This document shows, piece by piece, positions 4,750 through 63,495 of a stretch of 64,000 nt of DNA. Within the stretch, counting starts at the first letter, position 1. The number at the start of each line of letters is the position of its first letter. The stretch covers positions 1-64,000 of the forward strand of contig JAMNXP010000007.1 in the NCBI GenBank assembly GCA_023653095.1, written 5' to 3'. The translations under genes and the position numbers were made by a program. The stretch is from Bacteroidia bacterium (GTDB lineage: Bacteria; Bacteroidota; Bacteroidia; NS11-12g; UBA955). The notes beneath the pieces were generated by a model. The model saw only the letters and a list, made by a program, of their open reading frames with translations. It did not search any database and had not been told where the DNA came from.

Positions 4750-4753
4750 AATT

Positions 4754-4883
4754 TGGTCCTTGGTCTTTGGTCCTTGGTTGCCGGCTATAGAGTCCAGGGA
4801 GTAGAGTTCAGAGGGTAGCGGGCTCAACTCTAATCTCTAAACCCTCAACTGACGGCTGATCACCGATCACCTAAAACTAATCA
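4754..4883. repeat. Heptamer mosaic array 1
   Basis: Degenerate, short version of the mosaic. Reading the plus strand there are TTTGGTC-type units, then AGAGTTC/AGAGGGT-like units, CTCAACT-like units, GACGGCT, and GATCACC units running into the minus-strand TonB receptor. The TGA stop of that receptor (4881-4883) lies in a degenerate AATCACC unit. It fills the whole gap between two convergent genes. Confidence 0.8.
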
Positions 4884-9761: not shown

Positions 9762-9778
9762 GGTTGGACTCGGTTTTC

Positions 9779-10019
<241 letters not shown>

Positions 10020-21779: not shown

Positions 21780-22649
21780 ATGCAAAAGTCAGTTGAATTG
21801 ATCATGGCGCCTCCATCTCCTCATTTTGTGGGAGATGGCTTCAGGGTTCACACTTTTATACCTAGCAGTTATCGAATTGACATGCATCGCATGAATCCAT
21901 TCATTATGCTAGATTACAATTCCAAGCACTATTTTGAACCTTCTGATACTCCACGGGGTGTAGGTGTACATCCACATAGGGGCTTCGAAACAGTGACTAT
22001 TGCATATCAGGGAAAAGTAGCACATCACGACAGCGCTGGTGGAGGTGGAATCATTGGCGAAGGCGATGTTCAATGGATGACCGCCGCGTCTGGTGTATTG
22101 CATAAAGAATATCACGAAGCGAAATTTGCTCGTTCCGGAGGATGGTTTCAAATGGTACAATTGTGGGTCAATCTTCCTGCAAAGTACAAAATGTCAGCGC
22201 CCAAATATCAAGCAATCTCCAATGATAAGATGACACGTGTACCTGTAAAAGGCTCAGGTTTTATTGAGTTAATTGCTGGGGAAGTGGCTTCATTCATTGG
22301 ACCCGCATCTACGTTTTCTCCAGTTCATATATCCAATGCTAAGCTTATGGCTGGTGATGTTGCTGATTACTCTTTCCCCTTTCATTTCAATACTGCCATG
22401 ATTGTTGTTGAAGGCGAAGTCATCATCAACGGCACGGAACAAGCGCCCGTGAATCATTTCATTTTGATGGAAAACAACGGCGAAGATTTTAATATCTCAG
22501 CCACTCAAGACTCCGTTATATTAGTTCTAAGCGGAGAACCTATCAATGAACCCATTGCTGCCCATGGTCCTTTTGTTATGAACACCCATCAAGAACTGGT
22601 TCAGGCATTCAATGATTTCAATAACGGTAAGTTTGGGTATTTGGAATAG
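21780..22649 (+). CDS. Pirin-family cupin protein
   Basis: A 289-residue protein from the ATG at 21780; a TTG at 21762 would add six residues and lacks support. The N-terminal cupin carries GVGVHPHRGFETVTIAYQG and HHDSAGGGGIIGEGDVQWMTAASGVLHKEYHE, with the iron-binding His residues of pirins. A second cupin occupies about 165-285. Pirins are iron-containing regulators or quercetinases, and the role here is not clear. Its TAG stop is followed without a gap by TCTTTGG units of array 3. Confidence 0.92.
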   Translation: MQKSVELIMAPPSPHFVGDGFRVHTFIPSSYRIDMHRMNPFIMLDYNSKHYFEPSDTPRGVGVHPHRGFETVTIAYQGKVAHHDSAGGGGIIGEGDVQWMTAASGVLHKEYHEAKFARSGGWFQMVQLWVNLPAKYKMSAPKYQAISNDKMTRVPVKGSGFIELIAGEVASFIGPASTFSPVHISNAKLMAGDVADYSFPFHFNTAMIVVEGEVIINGTEQAPVNHFILMENNGEDFNISATQDSVILVLSGEPINEPIAAHGPFVMNTHQELVQAFNDFNNGKFGYLE

Positions 22650-23036
22650 TCTTTGGTCTTTGGTCTTTGGTCTTTGGTCTTTGGTCGCATGCTTCGCTGG
22701 GACTTACGCTTCGCTATGACTTGCGCTTCGCTAGGACTCACGCTTCGCTAGGACTGCGCTTCGCTGGGACTACGCTTCGCTGGGACTCACGCTTCGCTAT
22801 GACTTGCGCTTCGCTATGACTTGCGCTTCGCGCTGCTTTTCAGCTAAAGCTGCTGTCCGCTGACCGCTGACCGCTGACCGCTGACGGCTGACCGCTTATG
22901 GCTGACGGCTGAGAGTTGAGAGCCGAGAGCTGAAAGCTGAAAGCTGATCACCGATCACCGAACACCGATCACCGATCACTGATCACCGATCACCGATCAC
23001 CGAACACCGAACACCGATCACCGATCACCGATCACC
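22650..23036. repeat. Heptamer mosaic array 3
   Basis: The longest mosaic. It fills the gap between the convergent pirin and YeiH genes and contains no other feature. It begins at the base after the pirin stop with five TCTTTGG units (22650-22684). About eight units related to GCTTCGCTAGGACTCAC (17-18 bp) follow, then GCTGACC/GGCTGAC units, GAGAGTT and GAAAGCT units, and thirteen GATCACC/GAACACC units (22946-23036). The final GATCACC contains the reverse-strand TGA stop of the YeiH gene. Confidence 0.93.
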
Positions 23037-23925
23037 TATAACTGATCACCAACCACATGGTCACCAAAGCCAGCTGGATGGCGAAAATTACCACACCAAA
23101 CTTGATTCCGCGCTGACCTGAGTTGAGGAGCTTCATGAAACTTACCTTTAGTCCTATGGCGGCCATGGCAACAGTTAAAAAGGCCTCGCCGGCGAATTTG
23201 GTAATGGTTAGAACTTCTTTTGGTATTTGAATAAAAGACGCAATGATGGTGATTAAGACAAATGCGACGAGGTATTTGGGTAGTTTTAATTGCTCCTTTA
23301 AGGAAATATTCTCTCCTCGGTTGATGAGGAATTTGATGAAAATCAATCCTGGTGTAAGCATCGCTACTCGGGCCATTTTTATTGCTATTGCAGCGTTACC
23401 CGCGTCTTCGGAAATGGCGTATCCTGCGCCGGCAACGTTTCCAACACTGTGTAAACTTGCGCCTACGAAGAAGCCAATTTTTTCATTGAGCCAATGCATG
23501 TCCAACAAGGCAAATGGAATGGCAAGCATTCCAATGGCTCCCAAGAGGTTTACCACTGCCATAGCAATGGCTACGTCTTCCTTTTCTTGATTTTTAAGTG
23601 ATGGGGCTAAGGCCGCAATGGCTGATGATCCACAAATTGCCGTCCCAAATCCAACTAAAACACCTGTAGAACTTGGACAATTAAACTTCTTGGATAGGTG
23701 AAATGAGATCCACAGTACAAGAAGTACAATGATAACAATTCCCAAAAACGGCAACCAACCGGCTTTGCCAAAATTGGAGTAGTTGATACCAAATGCCATC
23801 ATGACTATGGAATATTCCAATAAGGTTGTGCTTGCCATTCCAACCCATTTGCTCCATTTTTCGGGCAACGTAAATACATTCCCAACAACAATTCCTCCCA
23901 ATAGGGCCCACATTACTGGATTCAT
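23032..23925 (-). CDS. YeiH-type putative sulfate exporter family protein
   Basis: From MNPVMWALLGG the protein has 297 residues and nine to ten membrane segments. The signature VGFGTAICGSSAIAALAP, and later ASLHSVGNVAGAG, identify the YeiH/UPF0324 family annotated as putative sulfate exporters. True substrates are not well established. Eight further residues could be read upstream to 23949 but do not fit the family. The last codons (WLVISYR, TGA) are written in degenerate GGTGATC units, so a repeat has become coding. A perfect dyad lies 16 bp upstream of the start. Confidence 0.88.
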   Translation of the reverse strand: MNPVMWALLGGIVVGNVFTLPEKWSKWVGMASTTLLEYSIVMMAFGINYSNFGKAGWLPFLGIVIIVLLVLWISFHLSKKFNCPSSTGVLVGFGTAICGSSAIAALAPSLKNQEKEDVAIAMAVVNLLGAIGMLAIPFALLDMHWLNEKIGFFVGASLHSVGNVAGAGYAISEDAGNAAIAIKMARVAMLTPGLIFIKFLINRGENISLKEQLKLPKYLVAFVLITIIASFIQIPKEVLTITKFAGEAFLTVAMAAIGLKVSFMKLLNSGQRGIKFGVVIFAIQLALVTMWLVISYR

Positions 23926-30798: not shown

Positions 30799-30805
30799 GG
30801 TGATT

Positions 30806-30960
30806 GGCCCTTGGTCTTTAGTCTTTGGTCTTTGGCCGACGGCCAAGAGCTGAGAGCTGAGGGCTGAGAGTTGAGAGCTGAGAGCCGAGAGCTGACCACC
30901 GACCACCGACCACCGACAACCGATAACCGATAACCGACCACCGATTACCGAAAACCAACC
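30806..30960. repeat. Heptamer mosaic array 4, in the arsR leader
   Basis: TTGGTCT-like units, a CCGACGG segment, then GAGAGCT/GAGGGCT/GAGAGTT units, then GACCACC, GATAACC and GATTACC units, ending AAAACCAACC directly before the arsR ATG. Units are more diverged than in arrays 2, 3, 5 and 6. It lies in the probable 5' untranslated region of the arsenic operon. Confidence 0.85.
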
Positions 30961-32342: not shown

Positions 32343-32623
32343 CCAGCGGTCAGCAGTCAGCAGTCAACTAAGAGTTTAGAGTTTAGAGTTTAGAGTTTAG
32401 AGTTTAGAGTTTAGAGCTGAGAGTCGAAAGCCGAAAGCCGAAAGCTGATCACCGACCACCGATAACCAAAGACCAAAGACCAAAGACCAAAGACCAAAGA
32501 CCAAAGACCAAAGACCAAAGACCAAAGACCAAAGACCAAAAACCAAAGACCAAAGACCAAAGACCAAAGACCAAAGACCAAAGACCAAAGACCAAAGACC
32601 AAAAACCAAAAACCAAAAACCAA
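32343..32623. repeat. Heptamer mosaic array 5, inside the arsenic operon
   Basis: Right after the arsC stop come CAGCGGT/CAGCAGT units, then AGAGTTT units (six or so), GAGAGTC/GAAAGCC units, GATCACC/GACCACC/GATAACC units, and finally 22 uninterrupted CCAAAGA/CCAAAAA units (32466-32619) followed by CCAAT and the ACR3 ATG. The long tract is the most regular in the window. Read in any frame it has no stop, giving spurious ORFs. Confidence 0.94.
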
Positions 32624-32624
32624 T

Positions 32625-38640: not shown

Positions 38641-38992
<352 letters not shown>

Positions 38993-38997
<5 letters not shown>

Positions 38998-40096
38998 GTC
39001 CCCAAGGCACAAAAACCGATATAATTCCTTCGCTGTAGGGTGCTATTTCGTAAAGGCCGAAAGAAGTTGTAAATCCTAGGTCAGTGAAATAAATATCGTC
39101 GCCAACTGCGTCAAATTTCTCAATCCATAAACCGTGTAAAGTGAGTTTGTCTTGTGCGGGTATTTTATTCTGCAATTTGTATTGCTGGGTCATCCATTTT
39201 GGAATGTTTTTTTGCTGTTTTTTTGAGTAATAATCATCTAAAGCTGCCAATTTATTTAGGGTTTTGTCCCAAGTAACATTACTGGTTCCAAACATCCCGT
39301 GAGCACCACCAGTGTATTCGTAGAAATGGTCTTGAATGACCGTGTAGCGATCAGAAACATATTGAATATTACTTATTTGTATAAAGTCTCTATTGCCAAA
39401 CAATCCCTGACTGGAATCATTGATTTGTTTCACAAAGTCCTCACTGATATAATCACAAATGTGCTGAAGTTGATGAATCAGGTGCGCTGGATTTCCTTGT
39501 ATGGTTCGTTGATCTACAGGATACTCGAATTTTACGGCCGTGCCATCTTCTGCGCCGTATTGCATATTGTTGATTTTGTAATATTGATTTTGTCTAATTT
39601 GATGGGATTCGATGGATGCGTCTTCGGGCCAAAGAACCCGTATTTGAACATGCGCCTCTCGCATGTCGTCTTCGTTTTTTGCATTATTGGGAGCTATGTA
39701 CTTATGGACTTGATAGACCGATATTGGATTGGTGAATTGAGTTAAAGTTACAGAGAGTTTTTTTTCTTGTTTCTCCCATACGCCCAATAACTCGTTATGA
39801 TGTCTATTTAGAACAATCGCTTCAGTTTCCGAAGCTCCTCCATAGAGAGTTTTTAGAATATACTGGCTATCATTGGCAGTCCCCTTGAACTCTATGGCCT
39901 GACCAATTCGATTATAATAATATCTACCCGAAACTTCGTTGTCAATTACTTCCAAAATTAAGCTAACTGGATATTCACCAATGGAACCCGAAAAGGTGAA
40001 GCATTTCCCCTTTTTTACATCGGGGTATCTAGCATTCTGTGAAAAGAGAGTAGTGGTTAATGCCAGCAGTAAAGTGAGAAATAGTAACTTTTTCAT
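38993..40096 (-). CDS. Secreted protein with DUF3298-like domain
   Basis: A 367-residue precursor with a signal peptide (1-19, ending LFSQ). The C-terminal half carries YEYTGGAHGMFGT and FGLYEIAPYSEGIISVFVPWGQ, features of the DUF3298/RsiV-like fold. The N-terminal half is beta-rich (FSGSIGEYPVSLILEVIDNEVSGRYYYNR). It is probably periplasmic or lipid-surface-associated with unknown role. The stop codon is provided by a GGTGATC repeat unit, and the region upstream of the start runs into array 7. Confidence 0.78.
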
Positions 40097-40141
40097 GGGT
40101 TTTATAACGCAAATTAAGGGGTTTTTAGTTTACGGTCGTTG

Positions 40142-40258
40142 GTAATCGGTTATCGGTTATCGGTAATCGGTGATCGGTAATCGGTAATCGGTAATCGGCT
40201 GACGGCTGACGGCTGACGGCTGATGGCTGACGGCTGATCACCGATTACCGAAAGCTGA
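40142..40258. repeat. Heptamer mosaic array 7
   Basis: GGTAATC/GGTTATC/GGTGATC units (about eight), six GGCTGAC/GGCTGAT units, then GATCACC, GATTACC and GAAAGCT, ending 2 bp before the minus-strand AAA ATPase stop. Here the mosaic lies between two genes on the same strand, about 45 bp upstream of the DUF3298-like gene, so it is not confined to convergent gaps. Confidence 0.88.
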
Positions 40259-40260
40259 AT

Positions 40261-41529: not shown

Positions 41530-41733
41530 TTGAGTTTAGAGAATAGGGTTTAAAGTTTAAACTGACGGCTGACCGCTTTGCGGGAGACTGTGAGACTGAC
41601 GCTGCGCGTTGCTTAGCGCCTTTGGCGCTGCTGACGGCTGACGGCTGACGGCTGACGGCTGACGGCTGACGGCTGATCGCTGATCGCTGACCGCTGACCG
41701 CTGACCACCGATCACCGATCACCGATCACCGAG
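41530..41733. repeat. Heptamer mosaic array 8
   Basis: Lies between the divergent AAA ATPase and sterol desaturase genes, the only array at 5' ends on both sides. It has AGAGTTT-like units, GGCTGACC, a GC-rich 17-mer-like stretch (GAGACTGTGAGACTGACGC and GCCTTTGGCGC), seven GGCTGAC units, GATCGCT and GACCGCT units, then GACCACC and GATCACC units ending at 41733. The flanks (41452-41529 and 41734-41836) hold AT-rich promoter-like sequence and nothing else recognisable. Confidence 0.9.
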
Positions 41734-51281: not shown

Positions 51282-51286
51282 TTTCT

Positions 51287-51347
51287 ACTTACAAAAAACA
51301 GGTGAAATTGTAAGTAGTACTTACAAAAAACAGGTGAAATTGTAAGT
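51287..51347. repeat. Two tandem 29-bp repeats with inverted ends
   Basis: Two identical 29-bp copies (51287-51315 and 51319-51347) are separated by 3 bp. Each begins ACTTACAA and ends TTGTAAGT, so each could form a hairpin with an 8-bp stem. They lie directly after the VOC stop. They may be a 3' processing or terminator-like structure or tandem operators. Confidence 0.75.
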
Positions 51348-62210: not shown

Positions 62211-62402
62211 TCGCTTCGCTGATCGCTGCGCGGATCGTTAAGAGTGAAGAGTTAAGAGTTTAGAGGGGAGAGTTTAGAGGGCTGTCCGCTGACCGCTGCG
62301 CTTGAGACTTTGTGACTCACGCTTCGCTAAGACTTGGCGCCTCTGGCGCTGCTGCCCGCCGATGGCTGACGGCTGATCACCGATCACCGAAATCCGATCA
62401 CC
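62211..62402. repeat. Heptamer mosaic array 9
   Basis: Starts in the rmuC stop with TGATCGC-type units, then GAGTTAAGAGTTTAGAG units, CCGCTGACC units, a GC-rich 17-mer-like stretch (GACTCACGCTTCGCTAAGACT), then GGCTGAC and GATCACC units ending at the TGA stop of the minus-strand gene (62398-62400). It fills the 187-bp gap completely. Confidence 0.9.
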
Positions 62403-63383: not shown

Positions 63384-63463
63384 TTACCCCCTTTTTATGA
63401 CAAATTCCTCGAAAAATTACCCCTATTTTATGACAAAAATCGCAAATAATTACCCCTATTTTA
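63384..63463. repeat. Three direct repeats of 33-bp period before an AAA ATPase gene
   Basis: TTACCCC(C/T)-(A/T)TTTTATG recurs at 63384, 63417 and 63450, exactly 33 bp apart (three helical turns), ending about 33 bp before the ATPase ATG. The first copy is diverged. Helical phasing fits binding of a protein to one face of the DNA. Confidence 0.75.
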
Positions 63464-63495
63464 TGCAGAAGTATTGAAAATCAATATATTTGAAT

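What the first reader, a model, noticed from the sequence alone, without database searches (positions are those of the whole stretch)
22650..23036. Nine intergenic mosaics built from a shared set of tandem heptanucleotides
Nine intergenic blocks in 64 kb (4754, 9779, 22650, 30806, 32343, 38641, 40142, 41530 and 62211) are made almost wholly of tandem 7-bp units drawn from one vocabulary: GGTGATC, GGCTGAC, GAAAGCT/GAGAGCT, AACTCTC, AGAGTTT and CCAAAGA, plus a 17-bp GC-rich unit. The unit length stays 7 across unrelated sequences, which suggests a common length-setting mechanism rather than independent slippage. Heptanucleotide STRR repeats are established in cyanobacteria; a multi-class mosaic of this kind in Bacteroidota is not something I know of.
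Basis: partly seen in the sequence, partly recalled or inferred. Interest (0 to 1): 0.85.

Follow-up and report, generated by a model that had tools for sequence, protein, structure and literature searches.

The report
Two-armed seven-base repeat blocks between genes
This bacterium fills some of its gene gaps with runs of seven-base words that form a private vocabulary and face inward from both sides of the gap; a sister species has such runs in many of the same gaps but with almost entirely different words, so the seven-base length and the layout last while the words turn over.

Summary
The nine blocks are real and of period 7, and such blocks recur through the sampled genome. (1) Neighbouring words are not unrelated: most differ by in-register substitutions in one 7-bp frame. 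(2) In 12 of 28 aligned gaps both own and sister species G002 have arrays, with different words. Words alone assign 100 of 104 blocks to the right species; of the common words only 1 is shared. One G002 block with own words lies in DNA 94% identical to own, against 82% on average. (3) Blocks are two-armed: GGT words run inward from both edges in 22 of 22 own and 30 of 34 G002 blocks with both arms, and in 24 of 26 blocks from other genomes, about half of them one Caldilineales assembly. No RT, Ku or RAYT was found in G002. Best reading: satellite-like arrays evolving by unit gain and loss, in-register mutation and exchange between loci. The cause of the polarity is open. New variant of heptanucleotide repeats.

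The parts
4753..4880 (.). Block 1, convergent gap, weak: TTTGGTC-type left arm then degenerate AGAGTCC/GGGAGTA words
   Evidence: coverage 0.28
9770..10019 (.). Block 2, convergent gap: GGTGATC left arm, CAGCTCT/CAACTCT centre, ACCAAAG right arm, then 2.6 copies of the 17-bp unit
22649..23036 (.). Block 3 (the finding), convergent gap between a pirin-like gene and a YeiH-like gene: GTCTTTG left arm, 17-bp units, hairpin, GCTGACC, GAGAGTT, GCTGAAA, GATCACC right arm
   Evidence: the orthologous G002 gap has other words
22691..22831 (+). 17-bp GC-rich tandem units (8.4 copies) with GCTTCGC
   Evidence: the unit's core was matched 14 times in the own samples, 0 in G002
30804..30951 (.). Block 4, tandem gap: TTGGTCT left arm, GAGAGCT centre, GACCACC/GATAACC right arm
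32344..32624 (.). Block 5, tandem gap between the ArsC-like and ACR3 genes: GGTCAGC, AGAGTTT, CGAAAGC, GATCACC, then about 23 copies of ACCAAAG ending at the ACR3 start codon
   Evidence: coverage 0.93
38641..38996 (.). Block 6, convergent gap: GC-rich hairpin element, TTTGGTC left arm, AGAGTTT, CTCAACT, GCTGACG, GCTGAAA, GATCACC right arm
40141..40260 (.). Block 7, tandem gap: GGTAATC/GGTTATC left arm, GGCTGAC centre, short TCACCGATTACC right arm
41530..41732 (.). Block 8, divergent gap: AT-rich start, hairpin element, GCTGACG, GCTGATC, GCTGACC, then ACCGATC right arm
62211..62397 (.). Block 9, convergent gap, weak: GTTAAGA/AGAGTTT words, hairpin element, GATCACC right arm
   Evidence: coverage 0.30

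Best explanation
The blocks are a satellite-like family of intergenic heptad arrays. Each arm is mostly one 7-bp register that gains and loses units and accumulates substitutions; a changed unit can spread within the array, which gives the runs of related words. Words also move between arrays at unlinked loci (by recombination or template switching between arrays), so each species drifts to its own vocabulary (concerted evolution), while the gap, the 7-bp register and the two-armed layout persist. Arrays sit mainly where no promoter is needed. Shown: period 7, in-register relatedness, private vocabularies, shared gaps with different words, inward GGT polarity, avoidance of the same word on both arms, no enrichment of the words outside arrays. 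Inferred: the exchange between arrays, its enzymes, and the loss of same-word arms as unstable palindromes. Unknown: what makes the GGT words face inward.
For: Period 7. In-phase word relation. Orthologous gaps: 12 both, 4 only G002, 1 only own, 11 neither, of 28 alignment gaps examined. Leave-one-out species assignment by words 100 of 104; words in 4 or more blocks: own 29, G002 41, shared 1. Vocabulary sharing does not fall with distance: cosine 0.255 within 10 kb (50 pairs), 0.202 farther on the same contig (188), 0.261 on other contigs (1358). Nonperiodic exact strings of 24 bp or more are shared by 45 block pairs among 57 own blocks and 10 pairs among 47 G002 blocks (some pairs are neighbours, and one G002 pair shares more than the array). 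Segment G002 C10 / own C14: flank identity 6068 of 6443, against 82.1% over 42 HSPs, with own words kept and a 14-bp (two-unit) gap. Arms: same-word overlap within a block 0.053 against 0.187 between blocks (own, permutation p 0.003), 0.013 against 0.066 (G002, p 0.002). Blocks in 22 of 59 convergent, 21 of 198 tandem and 2 of 117 divergent gaps.
Against: No exchange event was seen directly. The model does not by itself predict inward polarity. The probably transferred block kept the donor's words, so conversion to the host vocabulary must be slow; it also holds a 2-bp gap in its right arm, so not every length change is a multiple of 7. Independent convergence on a limited word set cannot be excluded: GCTGACG/GCTGATG/GCTGAAA words recur in Pseudoalteromonas and GGTGATC in several phyla.
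Confidence: 0.5

Rival explanations
1. Plain replication slippage with a built-in preference for 7-nt units, acting independently at each locus, as proposed for long simple repeats (7 nt as polymerase contact length).
For: Heptamers were the most abundant long simple repeats in most genomes, and a polymerase-contact explanation was proposed by others (Mrazek 2007 as reported in PMC4679880, section read, and in PMC4692102, passages). Two-unit gap in the segment shared with G002.
Against: Independent slippage does not give one private vocabulary at unlinked loci or inward polarity. Dialect words are not enriched in the rest of their own genome. Samples of sister species lack arrays, although MutS and Y-family polymerase matches are present in 14 of 14 genus members.
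Confidence: 0.15
2. Break-end growth: both 3' ends at a broken or gapped spacer are extended inward by heptad addition with a G/T-rich bias (telomere-like strand polarity) and then joined, leaving GGT arms head to head.
For: Inward GGT polarity on both sides, in all gap classes and in other genomes. Tandem GGT words on the inward strand fall from edge to centre: own 158, 75, 50, 42; G002 145, 100, 77, 38. The two arms usually carry different words.
Against: No Ku in 14 of 14 genomes, no RT in G002. Blocks show no clear link with synteny breaks (few events). No intermediate seen.
Confidence: 0.12
3. Selected function at the RNA level, such as two-way transcription terminators or 3'/5' untranslated signals.
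For: Strong bias to convergent gaps and scarcity in divergent ones. By the polarity rule, words in mRNA sense are GGU after stops and ACC before starts. Own blocks also carry GC-rich hairpins.
Against: Arms share a word in inverted orientation less often than chance. Words differ almost wholly between sister species. Neutral repeats that avoid promoters would give the same gap bias. No transcript data.
Confidence: 0.13
4. Templated synthesis by a telomerase-like reverse transcriptase (DRT10-like) with a short RNA template.
For: DRT10 makes tandem-repeat cDNA from a short RNA template (PMC12632851, preprint, start of abstract and passages). One RVT_1 protein in own, contig C11.
Against: No RVT_1 match in G002 (99% complete), which has the same kind of arrays, nor in 12 other genus members. 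Many words per block.
Confidence: 0.03
5. Degenerate mobile element of REP/BIME type with inverted ends.
For: Dispersed, intergenic, head-to-head ends, with GC-rich hairpins in own.
Against: No Y1 transposase in own or G002 (own is 75% complete). Blocks occupy the same gaps in both species with different words.
Confidence: 0.05

Closest known systems
TAACTGA direct repeats of Beggiatoaceae, Cyanobacteria and five Bacteroidetes (PMC4679880; outline and abstract, sections 3, 10 and 24 read)
   Same: Intergenic heptamers, patchy distribution, mostly 7-nt indels between two Cyanothece strains, other heptamers mixed in and larger heptamer assemblages in some Bacteroidetes
   Different: In its main genome one word, mostly just upstream of start codons. 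Here many words, a two-armed layout, private vocabularies and shared gaps with different words. TAACTGA arrays in viral contigs were one-armed here (0 of 81 blocks with both arms)
Cyanobacterial STRR heptanucleotides (name from recall and listings; three heptanucleotides of Calothrix mentioned in PMC4692102 passages)
   Same: Seven-base tandem repeats
   Different: Polarity and vocabulary turnover not described in what I saw; not compared directly
GGGAATC/GGGGATT quadruplex repeats of Xanthomonas and Nostoc (PMC4692102, passages)
   Same: Heptamers, G-rich on one strand; most lie between the same genes in two Xanthomonas with wide length and sequence variation
   Different: Own arms have only GG runs. 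No two-armed layout in the passages seen
Eukaryotic satellite DNA under concerted evolution (recalled)
   Same: Species-specific sequence with conserved unit length, turnover at fixed places
   Different: Short dispersed gene-gap arrays in a bacterium
DRT10 tandem-repeat cDNA (PMC12632851, passages)
   Same: Short tandem repeats of fixed length (9 nt in one system)
   Different: cDNA made from a noncoding RNA template; no RT found in G002

Membership tests
Heptanucleotide tandem repeats (STRR/TAACTGA/LSSR kind) | Tandem unit of 7 bp, mainly intergenic | tested here: met
Heptanucleotide tandem repeats (STRR/TAACTGA/LSSR kind) | Dispersed at many loci of one genome, patchy among relatives | tested here: met
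   own word at 59+62 places; GATCACCGATCACCGATC in own only of 57 genomes and of 395 of the phylum; small samples of 9 other genus members lack arrays
TAACTGA repeats | One dominant word, forward, just upstream of start codons (as in the Beggiatoaceae genome) | tested here: not met
   many words; blocks favour convergent gaps, 22 of 59
G-quadruplex heptamers (GGGAATC type) | Runs of three or more G in each unit | tested here: inconclusive
   own arms GGTGATC/GGTCTTT have two G; several G002 words have GGG
REP/BIME with RAYT | Associated Y1 (RAYT) transposase in the genome | tested here: not met
   0 in own and G002; 3 matches, all in G012
Telomerase-like RT product | Reverse transcriptase present in genomes with the arrays | tested here: not met
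   RVT_1 in own, not in G002
Hairpin (palindromic) element | Left and right arm of a block complementary | tested here: not met
   word overlap between arms lower within than between blocks in both species
Satellite DNA under concerted evolution | Within-species similarity among loci above similarity to the orthologous locus | tested here: met
   (by species assignment of words; not computed pair by pair)

The most novel reading that the evidence does not exclude
Two-armed heptad blocks are scars of a bacterial end-growth process: both 3' ends entering a broken or gapped spacer grow inward by G/T-rich 7-nt units, as at telomeres, without a reverse transcriptase, and are then joined. The process recurs across phyla and explains fixed length, inward polarity and different words on the two arms.
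Probability: 0.12. Interest if true: 0.92.

Novelty: new variant of a known kind. Interest (0 to 1): 0.72.

Why it matters
Why bacterial long simple repeats favour 7 bp is an old open question. Two sister species that hold register, place and polarity but swap nearly the whole vocabulary separate what is conserved (7 and the inward GGT frame) from what is free (the other four bases), and make the question testable. The private vocabularies also act as an accent by which transferred DNA may be recognised. The two-armed rule shows in genomes of several phyla and was not met in the listings and passages of the searches made, so it may unify repeats reported piecemeal.

Tried and rejected
Rfam at gathering scores: only a 5S rRNA in the window. 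A first pairing test with block halves gave lower pairing within than between blocks, but it is confounded by blocks of one polarity; I replaced it by a word-level test on blocks with both arms. Chi-like or genome-wide signal role: 18 dialect words counted outside arrays, none enriched in its own species (z from -2.1 to 1.3; one G002 word reached 3.3 in own), so not supported. Transcription-driven strand asymmetry: polarity holds in convergent (20 of 22), tandem (18 of 20; one more block lacked G or C) and divergent (2 of 2) gaps, and in mRNA sense the words differ at gene ends and starts, so one transcription bias cannot give it. In one search, 45 of the 51 blocks of the first samples fell in gaps of the simple ORF map. 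Synteny breaks: few events, no clear link. Crude arm classes by the seventh base: G002 28 of 34 mixed (p 0.0003), own 14 of 22, p 0.18. Periodicity higher at block edges is biased by how edges are defined. Relatives: only two-copy matches, read by eye in nine loci.

Results against the reading: G002 polarity in the second sample was weaker, 15 of 21, p 0.08; 4 of 34 G002 blocks had the opposite order; of 43 blocks of 90 bp or more from the named-genome scan 32 are G-left, and a coarser split gave 18 of 20 for the two-arm test; 13 of the 24 loci behind the 24-of-26 count come from one Caldilineales assembly, and all were picked for GATCACC; TAACTGA arrays in viral contigs show no two-armed layout and 7 of 14 long ones are G-left; a 2-bp gap breaks the register in the segment shared with G002. 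Trichormus plasmid A, first 50 kb: two short arrays. Pseudoalteromonas p1: own-like words in L225 and in one of three arrays of L226; none in L227 and L228. Streptomyces hits are short and were not pursued.

Full report
The observation. The nine blocks are in the sequence at the stated places and lie between ORFs. In the 64-kb window, self-matches at score 14 or more occur at period 7 (12 segments, 1080 bp) and its multiples and at none of periods 1-6 or 8-13; period 17 gives three segments and a few longer periods one or two; one shuffled copy gave none. Coverage of the nine named intervals by period-7 DNA is 0.28 to 0.93, so 'almost wholly' is too strong for several. The same words recur through the assembly: GATCACCx3 59 times forward and 62 reverse, reversed control 0.

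Two samples. I took 400 kb of own contig C1, 104 kb more there and 380 kb of other contigs; and from the closest relative found, G002 (88% protein identity at the YeiH-like gene, next best 55%), 379 kb, 197 kb and 400 kb. In the second sample arrays by period were 58 at 7, 1 at 6, 2 at 8, 1 at 12 and 1 at 13 in own, and 37 at 7, 1 at 6 and 1 at 10 in G002 (periods 2-13). Of 57 genomes searched (own, 13 others of its genus, 43 more distant), only own has GATCACCGATCACCGATC, and again only own among 395 genomes of the phylum. Samples of 5 to 40 kb from 9 of the other 12 genus members and of 20 kb from 7 more distant genomes gave no perfect heptamer array of 17 bp or more, and the YeiH-like loci of the other relatives gave one 17-bp AT-rich match only.

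Same gaps, other words. Aligning own (window and 284 kb of C1) and G002 (336 kb of C1, C8 and C12) with arrays masked left 28 alignment gaps; 12 hold arrays in both species, 4 only in G002, 1 only in own, 11 in neither. At the finding's gap own has GTCTTTG, the 17-bp unit, GCTGACC and GATCACC, whereas G002 has GGTAGAG, CAGACTA and TACC-type words. Species can be told from words alone in 100 of 104 blocks (57 own, 47 G002, leave-one-out), and of words present in four or more blocks (29 own, 41 G002) one is shared. The four blocks that fail carry the other vocabulary. One of them, in G002, lies in a segment 93% identical over 4001 bp to own C14; its flanks are 94.2% identical (6068 of 6443), against 82.1% weighted over 42 alignments of the two genomes, none of those over 1 kb above 87.9%. 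So it is probably a recent transfer that kept its words; an unusually slow segment is not excluded. Its array shows one 14-bp and one 2-bp gap. For the two own blocks on C3 no flank match to G002 was among the 73 matches listed, with 40 of 145 candidates scored; the fourth was not tested.

One register. Adjacent runs of different words are closest when compared in the same 7-bp phase. For non-overlapping pairs the mean Hamming distance is 3.38 in phase and 5.52 at other rotations, in-phase strictly best in 28 of 55 (own), and 3.27 against 5.41, 36 of 66 (G002). With overlapping runs included: 62 of 102, 67 of 93, and 66 of 86 in blocks from other genomes. So the classes are mostly mutational neighbours in one inherited frame, not unrelated sequences of the same length.

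Two arms. G-rich DNA lies on the left and C-rich DNA on the right: 20 of 25 own and 25 of 26 G002 blocks in the first samples (one own block without G or C counts as a miss), 27 of 31 and 15 of 21 (p 0.08) in the second. In blocks with at least two tandem GGTNNNN words on each strand, words starting GGTACC left out as ambiguous, forward words lie left of reverse words in 22 of 22 own and 30 of 34 G002 blocks. The rule holds in convergent, tandem and the two divergent gaps. Thirteen of these loci are one Caldilineales assembly; other titles include Verrucomicrobia, Phycisphaerales, Acidobacteriota, Elusimicrobia and a Streptomyces, which is one of the two exceptions. TAACTGA arrays in viral contigs do not follow the rule: none of 81 had both arms. 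The two arms of one block rarely use the same word: overlap 0.053 within against 0.187 between blocks in own, 0.013 against 0.066 in G002 (permutation p 0.003 and 0.002). This speaks against a selected hairpin and fits loss of long palindromes; one Caldilineales block is nevertheless a near-perfect palindrome (L197).

Setting. With simple ORF calls, blocks occupy 22 of 59 convergent, 21 of 198 tandem and 2 of 117 divergent gaps in the first samples of both species (convergent against rest p 1.6e-8). Flanking genes are ordinary and diverse: OprD-like, TonB receptor, OxyR-like regulator, M1 peptidase, pirin, YeiH-like, ArsC-like, ACR3, isocitrate dehydrogenase, RmuC; one (38996-40096) had no NCBIfam match. 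Dialect words are not enriched outside arrays in their own species. Vocabulary similarity does not fall with distance.

Enzymes. RVT_1: own only, 1 of 14. Ku: 0 of 14. Y1 transposase: G012 only. SbcD: none of 14 over cut-off, one weak match in G006, while 13 of 14 control genomes ring, so the whole genus may tolerate hairpins, arrays or not. MutS: matches in 14 of 14, 11 over cut-off. Y-family polymerase: 14 of 14. No gene tested separates the two array-bearing species from the rest; own is only 75% complete.

Mechanism. Best supported: satellite-like evolution. Unit gain and loss and in-register mutation are supported; exchange of words between loci is inferred from private vocabularies and shared nonperiodic strings. 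Inward polarity is shown but unexplained. Break-end growth would give it directly, as at telomeres, but no enzyme or intermediate was found. Selection for leaders poor in G could explain ACC words before start codons, not GGT words after stops in convergent gaps.

Known work. Heptanucleotides were the most abundant long simple repeats in most genomes and a polymerase-contact idea exists (Mrazek 2007 as told in PMC4679880, section 3). MacGregor 2015 reported TAACTGA repeats, mostly 7-nt indels between two Cyanothece strains, larger heptamer assemblages in Elizabethkingia and other heptamers beside TAACTGA in Gramella and Aequorivita (section 10). PMC4692102 (passages) says that most GGGAATC repeats lie between the same genes in two Xanthomonas with wide length and sequence variation, so variation in shared gaps is not new in itself. 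I saw no two-armed layout or vocabulary replacement in the listings and passages of the searches made; long hit lists were seen only in their top rows, and most subscription papers are outside that library.

Noticed in passing
window 41605-41635, 38680-38720, 22840-22856, 62330-62352: GC-rich hairpins with different stem sequences but kept pairing (read by eye) sit near the junction of heptad arms and 17-bp units in own; the 17-bp core was found 14 times in own samples and never in G002.
   Followed up: partly
own genome C11:326-886 (L092): A small reverse transcriptase, possibly retron-like by recall, near a contig edge; no RVT_1 match in the 13 other genus members.
   Followed up: no
genus-wide: No SbcD match over cut-off in 14 of 14 genus members (one weak match in G006) although 13 of 14 control genomes ring.
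   Followed up: no
window 32465-32624: About 23 ACCAAAG units end right at the ACR3 start codon inside an arsenic gene cluster, so the whole leader is repeat.
   Followed up: partly
window 23032-23060: The YeiH-like ORF ends inside the array, its last codons made of GGTGATC-like words; in G002 the same stretch is made of TTGGTA-like words.
   Followed up: partly
L280-L334: TAACTGA-type arrays occur in 55 stretches of viral contigs; phages may carry heptamer arrays between hosts.
   Followed up: partly
L293: Viral contig with AT-rich heptamer mosaics (AATTCAT, CAATCTT, TTGAATC) at several places.
   Followed up: no
L225 and L226 (NZ_CP077771.1): Pseudoalteromonas shioyasakiensis p1 has an array of GCTGACG, GCTGATG and GCTGAAA, words of the own vocabulary, and a 14-bp array GTATCTCGTACCTT.
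   Followed up: partly
window 51286-51347 and 63384-63465: A perfect 32-bp repeat (1.9 copies) and a 33-bp repeat of 2.5 copies, unrelated to the heptads.
   Followed up: no
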